Of a stretch of 64,000 nt of DNA, positions 1,687 to 13,072 are shown piece by piece. The position numbers and the translations under genes were made by a program. This DNA is from Phycisphaerales bacterium (GTDB lineage Bacteria > Planctomycetota > Phycisphaerae > Phycisphaerales > UBA1924), in the NCBI GenBank assembly GCA_028289195.1, contig JANQQR010000002.1, forward strand, positions 336,629 through 400,628, in the 5' to 3' direction. A model generated the notes under the pieces. That model did not search any database. It was not told where the DNA came from and saw nothing but the letters and a program-made list of their open reading frames with translations. How positions within the stretch are numbered: position 1 is the stretch's first letter; the number at the start of each line of letters is the position of its first letter.

Positions 1687-1855
1687 TTGCCAGTGGCCGC
1701 CGGCGGAGGACCGGCACCGGGGACGCACCACGCAAGAGCAAGGACGCTACCAGTGGAAGACAACACCAGGACGACGCACGCCGCGTGCTCTCGCCCCCAG
1801 GGCGAACGCCTCGGCTGGACCGTACGGACGCTCCGGCACGATGAAGGGTGAGAGC
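1687..1855. other. Gap between tRNA-Arg and the transsulfuration gene
   Basis: No coding signal, T-run terminator or S-box-like SAM riboswitch core is visible here. The last bases hold AAGGGTGAG (about 1844-1852), which serves as ribosome-binding site for the ATG at 1856. Confidence 0.5.
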
Positions 1856-3124
1856 ATGAGCGATCACTCCAGCCAACCGTCGTTCGACCGGCCCACCGAT
1901 CCCGCGGGTGAGACGCATCAGACGCACCTCGCGTGCCTCCACTCCGGCGGTCCGACACCGGCCGGTGCTCCGCTCGTGCGCACGATCACCCAGTCCACCG
2001 CGTTCGCTCAAGGAGCGGTGGGGGCGTCGACAGATCATCAGTACTCGCGGGTCTCGAACCCCACGGTCGCTGATCTCGAGCAGACGCTCGGCGATCTCGA
2101 GGCTGCGCCCCCCGGGGTCTGCTTCTCGACGGGCATGGCCGCCGAGACGGCCCTGTTCCTCACCGCTTGCCGCGCGGGTGACCACGTCCTGTGCGCCCGA
2201 TCCGTCTACGGCGGCACGACCCGCCTCCTCAGGCAGGTCCTGAGCGGCCTCGGCATCGAGTCGTCGTTCGTCGACGCCACCGACCCGAGTCGCGTGCGCA
2301 CATCACTGCAACACAACACCCGCCTGATCTTCATCGAGACTCCCGCCAACCCCACGCTGGAGCTCACCGACATCGGCGCGGTCAGCACGATCGCCCGCGA
2401 AGCCGGCGCGCTCCTCGCAGTCGACAACACGTTTCTCACGCCGGTCCTGCAGCAGCCGCTCGATCTCGGCGCGGATCTCAGCGTCTACTCGACGACGAAG
2501 TTCATGGAGGGGCACTCGATCGCCATGGGCGGAGCTCTGGTCGGGCGCAACCCAGAGCTATTAGACCGACTCCGTTTCACCCGGAAATGCACCGGTGCCA
2601 TCCAGACGCCCCACAACGCCTGGCTGACCCTCAACGGGATCCGCACGCTCCCGCTCCGGATGCGCTCCCAGTCCGAGACGGCGGCCAGGCTCGCCGCGTG
2701 GCTCAAGGGCCGCGCGGGCGTTCGAGCTGTCCACCATCCGACGCTCTACTCGGGCCCCGCGCGGGCGCTGGCCGACGCGCAGCACCTGGACGGCCTTCAC
2801 GGCGCCGTCGTCGCGTTCGAGATCGAGGGTGGCATCGACGCGGGACGGAGATTCTCGCGCTCCTGTCGCCTGTGTGCCCTCGTGGAGCACGTCGGATCCG
2901 TCGAGACGCTCCTGACCCACCCCGCGACGATGACACACGCGGAGGTTCCTGCCGAGCAGCGCGCCGAATGCGGAGTGACCGACGGCCTCCTGCGCCTCTC
3001 GGTCGGCCTCGAACCGGTCGAGGCGATCATTGCCGATCTCTCACAGGCGCTCGACGCTGCGATGAGCACCTCCTCCGTTGCGCCCGAAGGTGGAGAGAAG
3101 GACGGCTGCGCGTCGGCGGCTTGA
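1856..3124 (+). CDS. Cystathionine gamma-synthase/beta-lyase-type PLP enzyme
   Basis: PLP-dependent enzyme of the Cys/Met metabolism family (fold type I), acting in transsulfuration between cysteine and homocysteine or in direct sulfhydrylation. The substrate cannot be decided from sequence alone. Visible motifs are the SRVSNPT substrate/PLP loop, FSTGMAAETALF, DNTFLTP, and the Schiff-base lysine in YSTTKFMEGHS (K215 from this start). The length of 422 aa is slightly above the usual 380-400. ATG 1856 was chosen because AAGGGTGAG lies just upstream; ATG 1841 in the same frame would add five residues. It may work with cysK at 6.6-7.6 kb, but the genes are on opposite strands and not co-transcribed. 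Confidence 0.85.
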   Translation: MSDHSSQPSFDRPTDPAGETHQTHLACLHSGGPTPAGAPLVRTITQSTAFAQGAVGASTDHQYSRVSNPTVADLEQTLGDLEAAPPGVCFSTGMAAETALFLTACRAGDHVLCARSVYGGTTRLLRQVLSGLGIESSFVDATDPSRVRTSLQHNTRLIFIETPANPTLELTDIGAVSTIAREAGALLAVDNTFLTPVLQQPLDLGADLSVYSTTKFMEGHSIAMGGALVGRNPELLDRLRFTRKCTGAIQTPHNAWLTLNGIRTLPLRMRSQSETAARLAAWLKGRAGVRAVHHPTLYSGPARALADAQHLDGLHGAVVAFEIEGGIDAGRRFSRSCRLCALVEHVGSVETLLTHPATMTHAEVPAEQRAECGVTDGLLRLSVGLEPVEAIIADLSQALDAAMSTSSVAPEGGEKDGCASAA

Positions 3125-5202: not shown

Positions 5203-6590
5203 ATGCCAGGATTCATGCGCTCGACGACCGCTGCCGCCGGCCGGACGCCGGGTCACTGGGGCACGAGGATGATCGGCTCCGGTGTGGTGGCGATCGCGGC
5301 TATCCCGGCAGTGGCAGGGCCCCTCGATCCGCCCGCCGGTGCCATCAACCCGACCGGAAGATTCGGCCCCCGCATCGAGGTCAACCCCCAGAACACACCC
5401 GGCGACGCCGATTCGGTGTTCCGAATCGACCAACCCGGCTCGTACTACCTCGCCGAGGGCGTCACGGGCGAGGCGCTCAAGCACGGCATCGAGGTCGCCT
5501 CAGCGGACGTGACCCTGGATCTGAACGGATTCGCCATCGAGGGCGTGATAGACGCACTCGACGGCGTGCACATCGAACTCAACGGATTCATGCTCAACAT
5601 CGTCGTGCGCAACGGCTCGATCAACCAGTGGCCACTCGACGGAGTCAACGCCGACGACGCCGTCGGGATCATCCTGGAAGACCTCTCGTTCTTCTTGTGC
5701 CAGGGCCTGAGCATCCGGGCGGGAGGCGCAGCGCGCATCGCTCGGTGCCACACGGTCGGCAGCAACGGATTCCAGGGGCTGGAAAGCTGCGTGGTCCAGC
5801 AGTGCCGCGTGATCGGGACGCTGTCGGGCAACGGTTTCGGATTCGGGGCGAACTCGAACATGTCTCACTGCGTCGCCGCCGATTGCGATCAGGCGGGCTT
5901 CACCATCGAGAGCGGCACGATCACCGGCTGCGTGGCCAACGGGAACGGCAATGGCATCCTCGCCAGCAGCGGCAGCTCGGTGGTCGCGTGCGCCGCTTTC
6001 GAAAACGACTTCTTCGGATTCAGCGGAATCGGGTGCACGTTCTCCCAATGCCACGCCGAGCAAAACGGCGCAATCGGCTTTAATGCCAACCGCTGTTCTC
6101 TCTCCGCGTGCTCGGCCGTGAGAAACGACACACGGGGGTTCTTTCTCCAGCAGTCGTTCGCCGAGGCCTGCCTGGCCATCCAAAACATGAACGCCGGATT
6201 CGATCTCTCCGACGGCGGTTCAGTGCTGCACTGCACCGCGCTCGACAACGGCAGCGCGGGAGTCTTCCCGGGAATCCACGCTCAGTCCGAGTCTCATATC
6301 GTCGGAAACTTCTCCGCGGGCAACAGCGGGCCCGGCATCGAGCTCGAGGGGCGCGAATCCCTGATCGACTCCAACAACGTCGCCAATAACGGCATCGGGA
6401 TCCGCATCACCATGGACCGCAATCTGGTGATCCGCAACGTCGCTCGCGACAACGGCGGTGTCGACTACGACATCATCGCCGGCAACCGGGTCGGCATCAT
6501 TTCCGTCCCGCCGCTCAGCGGCACGATCTCGACCCTCGCCGATCCGGACGCGCTGGGAACCGGCACCACCGATCCCTGGGCGAACTTCAG

Positions 6591-6597
<7 letters not shown>
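5203..6597 (+). CDS. Secreted right-handed parallel beta-helix protein
   Basis: Exported protein of 464 aa. ATG 5203 was chosen because GGAGG (5191-5195) lies seven bases upstream; the open frame extends further 5' without a better start. After a signal peptide ending near AIPAVAG, the sequence has a region on unfolding of a default state (DSVFRIDQPGSYYLAEG), then many turns typical of the pectate-lyase-like NosD/beta-helix fold, rich in N-G-N, C-V-A and S-N-N-V-A-N-N-G steps with regularly placed Cys. No catalytic residues of polysaccharide lyases are evident. Such proteins are common in planctomycetes and their function is not established. The stop region overlaps convergent cysK by 7 bp. 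Confidence 0.78.
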
Positions 6598-7586
<989 letters not shown>

Positions 7587-7689
7587 GAGAGAGAGTCCTT
7601 TCGGTTCGTCGAAGGGCGCGATTCTCGTGCGGCGCCCCGTCTCGATCCAAGGCGCATCCGGGGAGGGAGTGCTGCCAGGAATTCTCGCA

Positions 7690-7723
7690 AATCCGGAGCA
7701 TCCGAGCCCTTCCGCTCCGGATT
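7690..7723 (-). repeat. 10-bp perfect inverted repeat between the ATP-grasp gene and cysK
   Basis: AATCCGGAGC (7690-7699) and GCTCCGGATT (7714-7723) form a perfect 10-bp stem with a 14-nt loop, just after the ATP-grasp stop codon. No T-run follows on either strand, so it is not a standard intrinsic terminator. It could be an RNA processing or stabilising stem that sets cysK expression apart from the upstream gene. Confidence 0.55.
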
Positions 7724-7733
7724 CAGCGTCGAA

Positions 7734-8726
7734 TCAGCGAACAGCCCGTGTCAGGGCGTAGCGGGCCAGGTTTTCGAACGGGTCGAATCCCAGCAGGGTT
7801 GGGCCGTCTCCGACGAAGTTCGACAGAGCGTTGATGTCGAAGAACACCTCCCGACCGGTCACGTCGTCGACCAGGTACTCCACGCCGCCGACCTCGATCC
7901 CCGCGGCGGTGAGGAGCCTGGCCGCGGCGTCGCGCACCGGGGCAGGGGGCGTGTACGCCTCGATCGTCAGGTCCGATCGCTCCGGGGAGCCCGAATACCC
8001 GGGGCGCCGCAGCGCCTGCCCCGAGCCGCTGCGGCACACCGAGGCGCAGCACAGATTGAACGAGTCGCCCTCGTTCCGGACCTTCACGGCGTAGTGGAAC
8101 CTGCCCCCGAGCACCTCGACTCGGATGACCGCCCGGTCCCGCGCGGACACCAGGCGCTGCACGAGGGCGATCCCGTCGAGCCCGGGATTGAATCCCTCGG
8201 AAGCGAACGCCGTCTCGGCCTCGTCGCGATTCGCGAACCTGCGGACCCCCGTCCCGCTCGCCCCGAAGTTGGGCTTCACGATGACAGGCCCTCCCAGCAG
8301 CTCGATCGCGTCGAGGGCGTCACGCTCGGTGTGCGCGCGGACGGTGCGGGGTGACACGAGGCCGGACGACCGGATCAGCTGCAGCTGGCGGCGCTTGTCG
8401 ACCTCGATGCGCATGGCGCGCGATCCGTTGATCACGCGGACGCCCCGGGCCTCGAGATCATCGATGACGCGGATCGCTCGAGCCATCGCGTCGGGCCGCC
8501 CGCGGTCCTGCGAACTGATGCTCATGCGATTCAGAACGACGCCGATGTGCGCCCCGATGGTCGAGGCATCGGTGCCCACATCGTCGTCGTGGAGGCGCTG
8601 GGCGGGCGAGCCGAGGCGCTCGAACGCCCCAAAAAGCGACTCAAACCACTGCGGGTGTTCGTAGTACACGCCGACGGCGACCCCTCGGGCGACCGCCGGT
8701 TCCAATGCTGCTGCGATGCTTGCCAT
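7734..8726 (-). CDS. ATP-grasp ligase, RimK/glutathione-synthetase-like, function unknown
   Basis: ATP-grasp protein of 330 aa. The ATP-binding lid VIVKPNFGASGTGV lies near residues 150-165, and the C-terminal metal-binding part has EVFFDINALSNFVGDG. An N-terminal pre-ATP-grasp part (GVYYEHPQW) precedes it. Such enzymes join a carboxylate to an amine or thiol, as in glutathione synthetase or RimK; the substrate here is unknown. An unusual internal cluster FNLCCASVC holds three cysteines. ATG 8726 follows AAGGTGAG; GTG 8735 is an alternative start. It is the first gene behind a Cys-codon attenuator and precedes cysK, which suggests, as inference only, use of cysteine or control by it. Confidence 0.72.
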   Translation of the reverse strand: MASIAAALEPAVARGVAVGVYYEHPQWFESLFGAFERLGSPAQRLHDDDVGTDASTIGAHIGVVLNRMSISSQDRGRPDAMARAIRVIDDLEARGVRVINGSRAMRIEVDKRRQLQLIRSSGLVSPRTVRAHTERDALDAIELLGGPVIVKPNFGASGTGVRRFANRDEAETAFASEGFNPGLDGIALVQRLVSARDRAVIRVEVLGGRFHYAVKVRNEGDSFNLCCASVCRSGSGQALRRPGYSGSPERSDLTIEAYTPPAPVRDAAARLLTAAGIEVGGVEYLVDDVTGREVFFDINALSNFVGDGPTLLGFDPFENLARYALTRAVR

Positions 8727-8763
8727 GGTGCTCACCTTGCTGGTTGATGCTCCGAATCCGGTT

Positions 8764-8796
8764 CAAAAAGACAACCGCCCCGCGTGGGCGGGGCGG
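8764..8796 (-). terminator. Intrinsic terminator in the leader of the ATP-grasp/cysK unit
   Basis: Read on the minus strand, CCGCCCCGC (8796-8788), loop CCAC and GCGGGGCGG (8783-8775) make a perfect 9-bp GC stem, followed at once by TTGTCTTTTTG (8774-8764). It lies between the leader peptide stop (8828) and the ATP-grasp start (8726), the position expected for a transcription attenuator and not for a terminator of another gene. Confidence 0.85.
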
Positions 8797-8879
8797 CTGG
8801 GTACGTCTCTGCTCGTTTGTTCGTCCGCTATCGGCACGCGACGATCGAGCGACATCCCTTCCGGCCCGCCCAGTGGGCG
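8764..8879 (-). promoter_or_regulatory. Candidate cysteine-responsive attenuator (alternative RNA pairings)
   Basis: Four segments pair in alternative ways. Protector: CGCCC (8879-8875) with GGGCG (8871-8867). Antiterminator: GGGCGGGCCGG (8871-8861) with CCGCCCCGCCC (8796-8786), one mismatch in 11. Terminator: the 9-bp stem at 8796-8775. A ribosome stalled with Cys24 in the A site would end near 8875, covering the first protector arm and leaving 8871-8861 free to block the terminator. A ribosome that runs on to the stop codon covers 8871-8861 and lets the terminator form. The geometry is seen in the sequence; the function is inferred. Confidence 0.7.
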
Positions 8880-8959
8880 AGACAGGTGCAGCAGCACTGG
8901 CACATAGTGGTGCGGGTGCTGAGGCGGGGGGTGTCGCATTTGTACGCGCGGTGCGTCAT
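8828..8959 (-). CDS. Cys-rich leader peptide, 43 aa
   Basis: Short ORF from ATG 8959 to TAG 8828. Eight of its 43 residues are Cys, and residues 20-26 read CQCCCTC, with TGC TGC TGC at codons 22-24; further Cys occur at 8, 36 and 42. A GTG at 8962 is in frame directly before the ATG. No Shine-Dalgarno site is present: the -10 box ends six bases before that GTG, so the mRNA is probably leaderless. The ORF is followed 31 nt later by an intrinsic terminator and then by the ATP-grasp gene and cysK. Mycobacteria are known to use leaderless polycysteine ORFs as cysteine attenuators; this looks like a planctomycete counterpart. The peptide itself probably has no function beyond being translated. Confidence 0.72.
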   Translation of the reverse strand: MTHRAYKCDTPRLSTRTTMCQCCCTCLAHWAGRKGCRSIVACR

Positions 8960-8968
8960 CACGCGGAG

Positions 8969-8996
8969 AGTATGGCCGTGCGAGCGCGCGGGTCAA
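8969..8996 (-). promoter_or_regulatory. Sigma70-type promoter of the Cys leader transcript
   Basis: On the minus strand TTGACC (8996-8991) and CATACT (8974-8969) are spaced 16 nt apart, matching the consensus at 5/6 and 4/6 positions. The start site expected six to seven bases downstream falls on the GTG/ATG of the leader peptide (8962/8959). It lies in the gap shared with the divergent glycosylase gene at 9025. Confidence 0.65.
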
Positions 8997-9024
8997 GGAG
9001 TTTCCTGCTAGAAGCGGGTGCGCG

Positions 9025-9651
9025 ATGCACGAGCTGGCTTCAACTGCCGATCTCGAAGGAGCGATCGCAGAGTTGCGTGCGCTCGAACCGCGCTTCGCCG
9101 AGGTCGTGCAGGCCACCGGCACGCCGCCGCTCCGGCGCGTCGAGCCCGGTCTTTCGGCTCTGCTCTCGATCGTGAACGACCAGTCGATCTCGCAGCACGC
9201 CGCGTCGACGGTCTGGAGCCGGACGCTGGCGATCATCGATGCGGGAGATCCCCGGTCCGTCCTCGATGCGGACGCCGAGGAGCTCCGCAGCGCGGGACAG
9301 TCCCGCAACAAGATCGCGACCTTCCGCGCCGTGGCAGAGGCGGCACTCGACGGGCGTCTCGGTTTCGAGACGCTCTCAGCCCTCGACGATGAGGCAGTGA
9401 CCGCGCAGCTCACCGCGATCCGAGGCATCGGACCCTGGAGCGCCCAGATCTACCTGCTGACCTGCCTCGGCCGGTCCGACGTCTGGCCCGCTGCCGATGT
9501 CGCGCTGCAGATCGGCGCACAGCGGGCGTTCTGTCTCCCGGATCGCCCGGTCGGTCGACGGATGATCGAACTCGCAGAGCCCTGGCGTCCATGGAGATCG
9601 GTCGCCGCCCGCCTGCTGTGGGCCTATTACCGGGTCGGCCCGGCGGAGTGA
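9025..9651 (+). CDS. DNA-3-methyladenine glycosylase II family protein (AlkA-like)
   Basis: Base-excision repair glycosylase of the HhH-GPD superfamily, 208 aa, which should remove alkylated bases such as 3-methyladenine from DNA. The helix-hairpin-helix is visible as RGIGPWSAQIYLL (about residues 133-145), and the catalytic aspartate is in PAADVALQ (D158). LLSIVNDQSIS matches the usual LIxxIxxQQxS helix. It is shorter than E. coli AlkA because the N-terminal extra domain is missing, as in many bacterial homologues. It is divergent from the Cys-leader promoter and followed 33 bp later by a lipoprotein gene with no evident functional link. Confidence 0.87.
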   Translation: MHELASTADLEGAIAELRALEPRFAEVVQATGTPPLRRVEPGLSALLSIVNDQSISQHAASTVWSRTLAIIDAGDPRSVLDADAEELRSAGQSRNKIATFRAVAEAALDGRLGFETLSALDDEAVTAQLTAIRGIGPWSAQIYLLTCLGRSDVWPAADVALQIGAQRAFCLPDRPVGRRMIELAEPWRPWRSVAARLLWAYYRVGPAE

Positions 9652-10908: not shown

Positions 10909-10943
10909 GCTGGCGACCCCGTATACTCGCTCTCGACACGATC

Positions 10944-11027
10944 TCGCACGGGGCGCCCCGGCCGGATGCCGGGGCTGAGACGCACCCGTTGAACCTGAAC
11001 CGGGTCGTACCGGCGTAGGGAATGCGA
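10944..11027 (+). promoter_or_regulatory. TPP riboswitch (THI element)
   Basis: The conserved core is complete: GGGGCTGAGA (10971-10980), the CCCGTTGAACCTGAACCGGG helix (10984-11003), GTACCGGCGTAGGGAA (11007-11022), and a P1 helix TCGCA (10944-10948) with TGCGA (11023-11027). It lies about 100 bp before thiC, where thiamine pyrophosphate should repress expression. A TATACT hexamer at 10922-10927 is a candidate -10 box. Confidence 0.96.
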
Positions 11028-11032
11028 TCGCC

Positions 11033-11055
11033 GGCGGCGCCCATCCGGGCCCGCC
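11033..11055 (+). promoter_or_regulatory. GC hairpin in the riboswitch expression platform
   Basis: GGCGG-C-GCCC, loop ATCC, then GGGC-CCGCC: a nine-pair stem with one bulged C, six bases after the riboswitch P1 helix. No U-run follows, so control by intrinsic termination is not supported. Translational or Rho-dependent control is possible. Confidence 0.5.
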
Positions 11056-11125: not shown

Positions 11126-13072
11126 ATGTCCACAATCCAGACCACCGATGTTGCTCGCCCCGAGGGCGATGCCGCGCCGAACCCGACCTTGTCGCAGAAG
11201 TGGGCCGCGCCGATCCCCGGCGCGCACAACCCCGCGACCCTTCGCGAGGGTACGACGCCGGGCTCGTTCGCCCGCCCGGCGGACATCGGCGGCCCGCTCA
11301 TGTTCGCGTCGCCCGACACGCCCGGCATGCCTGCGCCGAGCGACAAGACCGCTTGGGACTTCCTGCCCGACGGATGGACAACCGGCCACGCGTCGGACGG
11401 TTCAGCTGTTTCCGAGGCTCCGGCCCCGTTTGCCGCCGGCGCCACCGAGGTCGCGTTCCGGGAGGCGACGGGCGCCGTTCGTCGCGTCTCGTTCCCCGCG
11501 GGTTTCGAACCGATCACGCAGCTGGAGCACGCCCGCGTCGGCACCATCACGCCCCAGATGCGCCGCGTCGCGGAGCGCGAGCCCCATCTGACACCCGAGC
11601 AGGTGCGCGACGAGGTCGGAGCCGGGCGCCTGATCATCCCGGCGAACACCACCCACCTGCGCTACAACCTCGACCCGATGGCGATCGGCAGGGCGAGCAA
11701 GACGAAGATCAACGCCAACATGGGCGCCTCGCCCGTCTCCAGCGGCACCGATGAGGAAGTCGAGAAGCTCCGCTGGGCGGAGAAGTGGGGGGCGGACACC
11801 GTGATGGATCTGTCCACCGGCGGCGACCTCGACGCCTGCCGCGAGGCGATCATCCAGAACTCGACGGTGCCGATCGGCACGGTGCCCATCTACTCGATGA
11901 TCATCGGCAAGCGCATCGAGGACCTCGATCGCGAGACGATCCTCGAGACCTGCCGCAAGCAGGCGGCCCAGGGCGTGGACTACTTCACGATCCACGCCGG
12001 CGTGAAGCGCGCCCACCTCAAGCACATCAAGAACCGCCTCATCGGCATCGTCTCGCGCGGCGGCTCGCTGCTGGCCAAATGGATGCTCGTCCACAACGAT
12101 GAGAACCCGATGTACACGCATTTCGAAGAGATCTGCGACATCATGCGCGCCCACGATGTCTCGTTCAGCCTCGGCGACGGCCTCCGCCCGGGTGGCCTCG
12201 CCGACGCGACCGACGAGGCGCAGCTCTCCGAGCTCGAGACGATCGCCGAGCTCACCGAGCGGGCGTGGCGCAAGGGCTGCCAGGTCATGGTTGAGGGCCC
12301 GGGCCACGTGCCCTTCGACCAGATCGAGTTCAATATGAAGCTCCAGCGCCGCCTGTGCCACGGCGCGCCGTTCTACGTGCTCGGCCCCCTGGTCACCGAC
12401 ATGTTCCCGGGTTACGACCACATCACCAGCTGCATCGGCGCGACGTCCGCGGGCTTCCACGGCGCCGCGATGCTCTGCTACGTCACGCCCAAGGAGCACC
12501 TCGGGCTGCCCAAGAAGGACGACGTCAAGCAGGGCTGCATCGCCTACAAGATCGCCGCCCACTCGGCCGACATCGCCCTGGGCATCCCCCACACGCGCGA
12601 TCGCGACGACGCTCTGACCAAGGCCCGTGCCGCGCTGAACTGGCAGAAGCACTTCGATCTCAGCTTCGACCCCGACACCGCCCGCGCCCTCCACGACGAG
12701 GACCTCGACGTGGACACCGACTTCTGCGCCATGTGCGGCCACGACTGGTGCTCGGTGCGCATCAGCAAGGAGATCCAGGAGTTCGCCTCCGGAAACGCCG
12801 AGGGCTTCGAGCGGGGCAAGCCCGTCAAGTCCGCTGCGTTGACCGCGGAGCAGCAGCAGATCCTCGAGAGCCGCGGCGTGCTCTCACCCGACGAGATCCA
12901 CAAGCTCGCGGCCAAGACCAAGAAGACCATCGGCGCCGACGACGATGGCAAGGCCGCGTGCCACTCGGACTACGTCGACCCCGACGAGGCGAAGCGCATC
13001 CAGGAGGAGAAGCTGGTCCCGCTGAACACCGCTCCGGCGCACAACGTGCCGAGCCACGACAGCGTGATTTAG
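11126..13072 (+). CDS. thiC: Phosphomethylpyrimidine synthase ThiC
   Basis: Radical SAM enzyme that rearranges aminoimidazole ribotide into HMP phosphate, the pyrimidine branch of thiamine synthesis. The protein has 648 aa, with an N-terminal ThiC-associated domain followed by the TIM barrel. The C-terminal 4Fe-4S motif CAMCGHDWC gives C534, C537 and C542 (CX2CX4C, the ThiC signature). Typical segments such as [16 protein letters not shown], GADFLCYVTPxEHLGLP-like and NANMG are present. It sits behind a TPP riboswitch, so end-product control is expected. No other thi gene is in the window. A weak GAGAAAGG lies 14 bases before the ATG. Confidence 0.98.

What the first reader, a model, noticed from the sequence alone, without database searches (positions are those of the whole stretch)
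8764..8996. Complete cysteine-codon attenuator with a leaderless Cys-rich peptide upstream of an ATP-grasp gene and cysK
Seen on the minus strand: promoter TTGACC-16-CATACT; six bases after the -10 box a GTG-ATG opens a 43-codon ORF with Cys at 8, 20, 22, 23, 24, 26, 36 and 42. The ORF ends at 8828 and a 9-bp GC hairpin with a U-tract follows (8796-8764). The segment GGGCGGGCCGG (8871-8861), a few bases after the Cys tract, pairs with CCGCCCCGCCC (8796-8786, one mismatch), which would block the terminator, and also with CGCCC (8879-8875), which would protect it. The spacing fits: a ribosome stalled at Cys24 covers 8879-8875 but leaves 8871-8861 free; a ribosome at the stop covers it. The downstream genes include cysteine synthase, the logical target. 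Cysteine attenuators with leaderless polycysteine ORFs are established in mycobacteria; I know of none in planctomycetes. That the mechanism works here is inference.
Basis: partly seen in the sequence, partly recalled or inferred. Interest (0 to 1): 0.93.

Follow-up and report, generated by a model that had tools for sequence, protein, structure and literature searches.

The report
Conserved cysteine-sensing transcription attenuator
A short cysteine-rich reading frame, predicted to begin right at the start of its RNA, sits with a terminator hairpin ahead of an ATP-grasp gene and a cysteine-synthase gene, and the same arrangement stands before ATP-grasp, cysteine-synthase or other sulfur genes in some Acidobacteriota and before an ATP-grasp gene in a Chloroflexota genome, so bacteria of little-studied phyla likely switch on sulfur genes when the ribosome runs short of cysteine.

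Summary
No other place in any frame of the 64 kb has 5 Cys in 8 codons. Comparison supports the interpretation. Of 47 loci with a related ATP-grasp gene, 21 carry a short Cys ORF upstream, 17 by rule and 4 by eye. The same kind of leader precedes cysK in 6 of 72 acidobacterial cysK loci and one further genome, and a metY-type gene. In 26 of 27 leaders the stretch after the Cys codons pairs with the terminator's 5' arm better than its shuffles. With a ribosome modelled on the Cys codons this pairing holds the 5' arm in 23 of 27, with one at the stop in none; at full-length equilibrium, however, the terminator is lost in only 5 of 27. Eleven of 21 have a promoter match that would put the start codon at the RNA's 5' end. 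Best reading: a cysteine-responsive, leaderless transcription attenuator. Response to cysteine is untested. One detail fails: a ribosome at the stop does not cover the antiterminator segment.

The parts
8991..8996 (-). -35 box TTGACC
   Evidence: TTGAC stands at the matching place in 13 of the 21 ATP-grasp leaders scored, window included
8969..8974 (-). -10 box CATACT, 6 nt before GTG and 9 nt before ATG
8828..8959 (-). leader ORF, 43 codons from ATG (44 from GTG 8962), 8 Cys; predicted leaderless
8882..8902 (-). Cys tract C-Q-C-C-C-T-C (codons 20-26), predicted stalling site
   Evidence: Cys clusters in the 26 other leaders used
8875..8879 (-). strand 1, CGCCC, can pair with strand 2
8861..8871 (-). 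strand 2, predicted antiterminator segment GGGCGGGCCGG
8788..8799 (-). strand 3, terminator 5' arm CAGCCGCCCCGC
8772..8783 (-). strand 4, terminator 3' arm GCGGGGCGGTTG
8764..8771 (-). U tract TCTTTTTG
7734..8735 (-). ATP-grasp gene, RimK-like (GTG 8735 or ATG 8726 as start)
6591..7586 (-). cysK, cysteine synthase A (TIGR01139 above its cut-off); the consensus scan found no promoter-like or terminator-like site between it and the ATP-grasp gene

Best explanation
The region is a Cys-codon leader ORF with an intrinsic-type terminator and a competing segment, conserved in kind upstream of sulfur genes in other phyla, and it likely works as a ribosome-mediated transcription attenuator that would let transcription into the ATP-grasp gene and cysK when charged cysteinyl-tRNA is short. 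Inferred steps: the transcript likely starts at or within a few bases of GTG-ATG, so the ribosome would load on the 5' end. With enough cysteine it would run past the tract, strand 2 would not capture strand 3 in time, and hairpin 3:4 with the U tract would stop RNA polymerase. With little cysteine it would stall at codons 20-26 and leave strand 2 free to take strand 3 before strand 4 is made (at codon 26 it would also cover strand 1), so the polymerase would read through. Shown by sequence and calls: anatomy, recurrence across genomes, placement on cysK and a metY-type gene, and excess pairing between strands 2 and 3. Not shown: transcript start, translation, termination, co-transcription of cysK and any response to cysteine.
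For: Anatomy and rarity in the window. Recurrence at ATP-grasp genes: 21 of 47 loci, 17 by rule and 4 by eye. Recurrence at cysK: 6 of the 72 loci, 3 by rule (L158, L161, L162) and 3 with two adjacent Cys codons by eye (L159, L160, L163), these being the six most similar to the query (71-81%), plus L149; and at a metY-type gene, L153. Genomes G568, G574 and G575 carry both an ATP-grasp and a cysK leader. Strands 2 and 3: mean duplex energy -19.8 against -13.7 for shuffles and -9.6 for the stretch before the tract; better than the shuffle mean in 26 of 27; Wilcoxon 1.5e-8, and 9.5e-7 after dropping six members of close pairs (n=21, 12 of them singly below 0.05); window alone p=0.017. Other terminator letters go with other strand-2 letters in the window, L124 and L125. 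Before strand 4 is made, a ribosome in the tract gives strand 2 hold of strand 3 with P>0.5 in 23 of 27 (shuffled spacers 7-15 of 27), one at the stop in 0 of 27. Window: modelled stalls at Cys 20, 22, 23, 24 and 26 remove the terminator fold, stalls at 8, 36 or 42 do not. Promoter: 11 of 21 score at least 9 of 12 with the -10 ending 6-9 nt before the start codon, against 0.9% of shuffles. In the window's family: short Cys leaders before a cysE-like-cysK pair in two genomes.
Against: At full-length equilibrium the terminator survives a modelled stall in 22 of 27 leaders (lost in 5, mean 1.05 in shuffled controls), so most leaders need the kinetic argument. Swapping terminators among the 21 leaders changes the mean pairing energy only from -15.8 to -14.6; L121 and L126 keep 5-6 matched letters without a clear energy preference, and L147 and L148 show none. 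In the window the RNA without a ribosome also favours 2:3 before strand 4 is made (0.75, as with a stall). Stalls at Cys 8, 36 and 42 would leave the terminator standing. 26 of 47 ATP-grasp loci have no such leader found (one had only 12 nt upstream), and 66 of 72 acidobacterial cysK loci have none found (two had about 90-100 nt). In the window's family 27 of 29 other cysK loci have none found, and the two that do, like the five genus-g51 ATP-grasp leaders, score 9-23.5 for a terminator where 20 of the 21 leaders score 29-50.5 and one 21. RNAalifold finds no pairs on the plain MAFFT alignment. Leaders are partly related, so p-values are not from independent cases. No RNA or expression data.
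Confidence: 0.85

Rival explanations
1. The Cys ORF makes a working small peptide (a precursor modified by the neighbouring ATP-grasp enzyme, or a metal- or redox-binding peptide), and the hairpin is just its transcript end.
For: Peptide-modifying ATP-grasp enzymes exist (recalled); the window's enzyme has one weak hit to an ATP-grasp peptide maturase model, 21.9 bits against a cut-off of 350. Cys-rich peptides can bind metals (recalled).
Against: The same kind of leader sits on cysK, a metY-type gene and a cysE-like-cysK pair. The peptides share little beyond the Cys cluster, and length varies from 14 to 43 in the 27 leaders. Strand 2 pairs with the terminator in excess of shuffles, which a precursor does not need.
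Confidence: 0.05
2. The leader controls translation rather than transcription: stalling frees or hides the start site of the ATP-grasp gene, as reported for mycobacterial cysteine leaders.
For: Mycobacterial leaderless Cys ORFs are described as acting on translation (passages in PMC13236596, and PMC9031893). In the window's own family, Cys leaders at five distant ATP-grasp genes and two cysE-like-cysK pairs have no comparable terminator.
Against: The window and the leaders have a stem followed by a T-rich stretch between ORF and gene, and strand 2 matches the terminator 5' arm.
Confidence: 0.08
3. The leader senses something other than cysteine supply, such as metal, oxidation or tRNA-synthetase failure, through slow decoding of Cys codons.
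For: Any of these would slow Cys codons; sequence cannot tell them apart.
Against: Genes behind the leaders include cysK, a metY-type gene, a cysE-like gene and an SfnG-like monooxygenase, all tied to sulfur supply.
Confidence: 0.1
4. Chance: an unused ORF over an ordinary terminator.
For: The terminator letters are common: 18 of 162 other family genomes have a DNA match to the query, nearly all to the hairpin.
Against: Rarity in the window, recurrence at homologous genes, promoter placement and pairing excess.
Confidence: 0.02

Closest known systems
Mycobacterial leaderless polycysteine short ORFs (Canestrari et al. 2020, not held; first noted in Shell et al. 2015, PMC4633059, passages)
   Same: Short ORF at the RNA 5' end, cluster of Cys codons, upstream of sulfur genes such as cysA2.
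   Different: Described as acting on translation (passages in PMC13236596 and PMC9031893); here a terminator and a matching antiterminator segment stand between ORF and gene. Other phyla, other target genes.
uORFC-8-2 motif upstream of cysS in Rhodobacterales (PMC8632094, passage)
   Same: uORF with Cys codons and an intrinsic terminator; ribosome-mediated attenuation proposed.
   Different: Two tandem Cys codons inside the first stem; only in Rhodobacterales, only at cysS; a leaderless start is not mentioned in the passage read. No Rfam family reached its threshold at the window leader or at the leaders of the 13 loci scanned.
Streptomyces lividans metL leader MSTTSDRTPATEATTTPGARCMCRRMCAF (PMC8079986, passage)
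   Same: Leaderless short ORF with a C-M-C-R-R-M-C cluster, much like C-M-C-C here, upstream of a sulfur amino-acid gene set (metNIQ).
   Different: Its authors assign it to methionine and report no typical Rho-independent terminator.
Classical amino-acid attenuators (trp, his, leu leaders; recalled)
   Same: Stall codons, strands 1-4, terminator against antiterminator.
   Different: Leader ORF predicted to lack a Shine-Dalgarno site; cysteine as the amino acid; in the window the stop lies too far from strand 2 for a ribosome there to mask it.

Membership tests
Ribosome-mediated transcription attenuator | Short leader ORF rich in codons of the regulated amino acid | tested here: met
   8 Cys of 43, 5 of 7 at codons 20-26; unique in window
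Ribosome-mediated transcription attenuator | Intrinsic-type terminator between leader ORF and first gene | tested here: met
   by sequence: and relatives; termination itself not measured
Ribosome-mediated transcription attenuator | Segment past the stall codons able to pair with the terminator 5' arm | tested here: met
Ribosome-mediated transcription attenuator | A ribosome at the stop masks strand 2, or hairpin 1:2 re-forms | tested here: inconclusive
   stop is 31 nt past strand 2, so masking is not met in the window; 1:2 can form but is not clearly favoured
Ribosome-mediated transcription attenuator | Readthrough rises when the amino acid is short | not testable with these tools
   needs RNA or reporter data
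Mycobacterial leaderless polycysteine attenuators | Start codon at or near the transcript 5' end | tested here: inconclusive
   promoter placement fits in the window and 10 more of 21 leaders; no mapped 5' end
Mycobacterial leaderless polycysteine attenuators | Run of adjacent Cys codons | tested here: met
   TGC-TGC-TGC at codons 22-24
Mycobacterial leaderless polycysteine attenuators | Control at translation of the downstream gene | tested here: inconclusive
   a terminator with matching strand 2 points to transcription instead; level of control not measured, and mycobacterial leaders were not examined here; so it works like them at the sensor but is not filed as a member
uORFC-8-2 (cysS leader) | Upstream of cysS, two Cys codons within stem 1 | tested here: not met
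   target is an ATP-grasp gene and cysK; the alternative strands start after the Cys tract

The most novel reading that the evidence does not exclude
A cysteine regulon run by leaderless, transcription-terminating Cys attenuators exists in Acidobacteriota, Planctomycetota and Chloroflexota, with ATP-grasp, cysK, cysE-like and metY-type genes as members; the planctomycete joined two members, the ATP-grasp gene and cysK, behind one attenuator, and this ATP-grasp family, often paired with an SfnG-like monooxygenase, is an unrecognised enzyme of cysteine or organosulfur supply.
Probability: 0.7. Interest if true: 0.8.

Novelty: new variant of a known kind. Interest (0 to 1): 0.74.

Why it matters
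If true, cysteine attenuation by ribosome stalling is not a peculiarity of mycobacteria or of cysS in Rhodobacterales but a recurrent way of running sulfur supply in phyla with almost no known amino-acid regulation; [quoted passage not shown] It joins predicted leaderless translation to intrinsic termination, which one reporter can test, and gives a large RimK-like ATP-grasp family (2049 proteins at E<=1e-20 among 7998 scored candidates) a first pointer to sulfur metabolism.

Tried and rejected
Looking again at the flagged ORFs showed that L066 and L068 have one about 1 kb upstream of cysK, at the head of a cysE-like-cysK pair. L062 (3 scattered Cys) was looked at and not counted; flagged ORFs in L052, L053, L055, L061, L063, L064, L075, L076 and L077 were not examined further. 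The rule would miss leaders with two Cys, and only 30 loci were given, so other family cysK genes were not seen. DNA similarity of the leader in the family: apart from the window, 18 of 19 matches are to the terminator letters. Consensus fold on a plain MAFFT alignment: no pairs, as spacing varies; no covariance model was built. Rfam: nothing at the leader. Full-length equilibrium folding with a stalled ribosome: terminator lost in 5 of 27; kept as evidence against. SfnG-like gene in the window's genome: none found. A separate ATP-grasp group of the phylum (13 genomes, f23) has another neighbour (an FAD-type oxidoreductase by eye) and no Cys leader (short Cys ORFs flagged in L096, L099, L100, L102 judged to lie in coding sequence). 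ORFs flagged by rule but judged not leaders: at ATP-grasp loci L133, L135, L137, L145; at cysK loci L193, L213, L225. Not examined: G786, G821, G927, which gave no loci, and the weak matches L004-L030 and L036-L048. Upstream letters were printed for 47 ATP-grasp loci but for only part of the 72 cysK loci; the rest were judged by script alone.

Full report
What is there. On the minus strand, TTGACC-16-CATACT is followed after six bases by GTG-ATG, a 43-codon ORF with eight Cys codons, and a 9-bp G-C hairpin with a U tract, then a RimK-like ATP-grasp gene and cysK. In the 64 kb no other place in any frame has five Cys in eight codons. In 6400-9200 this is the only promoter-like site (0.3 expected) and the only terminator place (two overlapping hits, 1.0 expected), so the scan found no separate promoter or terminator for cysK.

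Which gene carries the leader. The ATP-grasp gene is sporadic. In 101 genomes (the window's own and 100 relatives) the best-scoring other matches are 32-33% identical; in 392 genomes of the phylum 15 match at E<=1e-25: the window's, one close one (G533, no leader found) and 13 of a separate group. Closer relatives lie in Acidobacteriota, Chloroflexota and Caulobacteraceae: 13 of 148 genomes in one acidobacterial class, 33 of 396 across that phylum (30 gave loci), 3 of 150 in the Chloroflexota class. I examined 47 loci, the window among them. By rule (3 or more Cys in 8 codons of a short ORF) and position 17 have a Cys leader; 4 more were added by eye (L033, L128, L143, L148); 26 have none found. 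The two Caulobacteraceae loci have none. The window's enzyme sits on a long branch of the tree, and the leader label needs 7 changes against 16.3 for shuffled labels, so leader and family go together with several gains or losses. In 11 of the 21 the next gene is a flavin monooxygenase of one kind; scored by model in L033 and L035, its best hit is dimethylsulfone monooxygenase SfnG, below that model's cut-off; in the other nine it was recognised by its shared N-terminal motif.

The leader is not tied to ATP-grasp. A pattern for Cys codons followed by this terminator type, run on 145 genomes, hit six places in 5 genomes (the reversed pattern hit 2); three were at ATP-grasp genes, and three directly ahead of cysK (L149, L150) or of an O-acetylhomoserine sulfhydrylase-type gene (L153). 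A cysK search in 297 acidobacterial genomes gave 72 loci; a script read the upstream of all 72 (two had about 90-100 nt). Six have the leader with a terminator, three by rule and three with two adjacent Cys codons by eye; they are the six most similar to the query (71-81%), L149 itself being outside that sample. G568, G574 and G575 have both a cysK and an ATP-grasp leader. This is why a cysteine signal is the best reading, and why a planctomycete with ATP-grasp and cysK behind one leader makes sense.

In the window's own family. In genus g51, a more distant ATP-grasp gene (30% identity to the window's) is present in 5 of 8 genomes and preceded in all 5 by a Cys-rich ORF such as MTIQIDKSHQHRGQMCCAGHCQRHCSQL, with GAGGAAC before ATG in 4. 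None of these seven has a terminator of the strength found elsewhere (scores 9-23.5; 29-50.5 in 20 of the 21 leaders), so they may be a translational or Rho-dependent version.

Start at the 5' end. In 11 of 21 leaders a promoter match of at least 9 of 12 puts the -10 box 6-9 nt before the start codon; 0.9% of shuffled upstream stretches do so. Two of 21 have a Shine-Dalgarno-like stretch. No transcript was mapped.

Alternative pairing. In 27 leaders (19 at ATP-grasp genes, 7 at cysK, 1 metY-type) the 40 nt after the last Cys codon of the tract pair with the terminator 5' arm at -19.8 kcal/mol on average, against -13.7 for shuffles of the same letters and -9.6 for the stretch before the tract; 26 of 27 beat their shuffle mean (p = 1.5e-8; 9.5e-7 after dropping six members of close pairs, n = 21). 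Earlier tests on the 21 ATP-grasp leaders gave combined p of 1.7e-5 and 0.0017, and run scores of 15.0 after the tract, 10.2 before it and 8.6 nearer the terminator. Where the terminator letters differ, strand 2 prefers its own terminator in the window, L124 and L125; L121 and L126 keep 5-6 matched letters without a clear energy preference, L147 and L148 show none, and over all 21 the mean with swapped terminators is -14.6 against -15.8 for the own. In a model in which the 3' arm is not yet made, a ribosome in the tract lets strand 2 hold the 5' arm with P>0.5 in 23 of 27 (7-15 of 27 in shuffled controls), no ribosome in 10 of 27, a ribosome at the stop in 0 of 27. At full-length equilibrium the terminator is lost in 5 of 27, the window among them, against a mean of 1.05 in shuffled controls. 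In the window, modelled stalls at Cys 20-26 remove the terminator and stalls at 8, 36 or 42 do not; a 13-nt reach ahead of the A site is assumed throughout. So the tract is placed where a stall would matter.

What is known. Shell et al. 2015 (PMC4633059, passages) proposed cysteine leaders in mycobacteria; Canestrari et al. 2020 tested them (not held; described as translation attenuation in passages of PMC13236596 and PMC9031893). A cysS leader of Rhodobacterales with two Cys codons and a terminator is in PMC8632094 (passage). A Streptomyces leader with C-M-C-R-R-M-C ahead of metNIQ is assigned to methionine in PMC8079986 (passage). The listings of the paper searches on cysteine, leader peptides and attenuation, some with Acidobacteri, Planctomycet, cysK or sulfur added (one search listed 25 of 1,654), show no cysteine attenuator in these phyla; the library lacks most subscription journals. 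I file it as a new variant of a known kind. Confidence 0.85 that it is a cysteine-codon transcription attenuator; the response to cysteine is not shown.

Noticed in passing
L131-L134, L137-L139, L142, within about 110 nt before the ATP-grasp gene: Eight acidobacterial genomes without the Cys leader share a conserved stretch (CATCTAAANTTGAGATATNAGAT ... TTGTAAC ... AGTCGAA in most) directly upstream of the ATP-grasp gene; no Rfam match there in the two scanned, L132 and L138.
   Followed up: partly
L230-L234: In genus g51 of the window's family a distant ATP-grasp gene has a Cys-rich upstream ORF (5 of 5 loci), with a Shine-Dalgarno-like site in 4 and no strong terminator: perhaps a translational version.
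   Followed up: partly
L066 and L068, about 1 kb before cysK: MQRRPHQCCC and MTRCCRSCCC, short Cys ORFs ending at the Cys run, head cysE-like-cysK pairs in the window's family, without a strong terminator.
   Followed up: partly
L143, L148: Two ATP-grasp loci have a very short upstream ORF ending in R-C-I-C-R and stop, a possible second leader type.
   Followed up: no
L113, L115, L116: Behind these ATP-grasp genes lies an o-succinylbenzoate synthase-like gene instead of the SfnG-like gene (named by model in L115 only).
   Followed up: no
window 10939-11039 (+): TPP riboswitch ahead of the ORF at 11126-13072, which looks like thiC (the gene name is recalled).
   Followed up: no
window 1841-3124 (+): A Cys/Met metabolism PLP-enzyme gene (cystathionine gamma-synthase / sulfhydrylase family) without a Cys tract leader in the same 64 kb.
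   Followed up: no
window 7587-7733 (-): Between ATP-grasp and cysK a 10-bp inverted repeat (AATCCGGAGC ... GCTCCGGATT) without a T tract; could be a pausing or processing hairpin.
   Followed up: no
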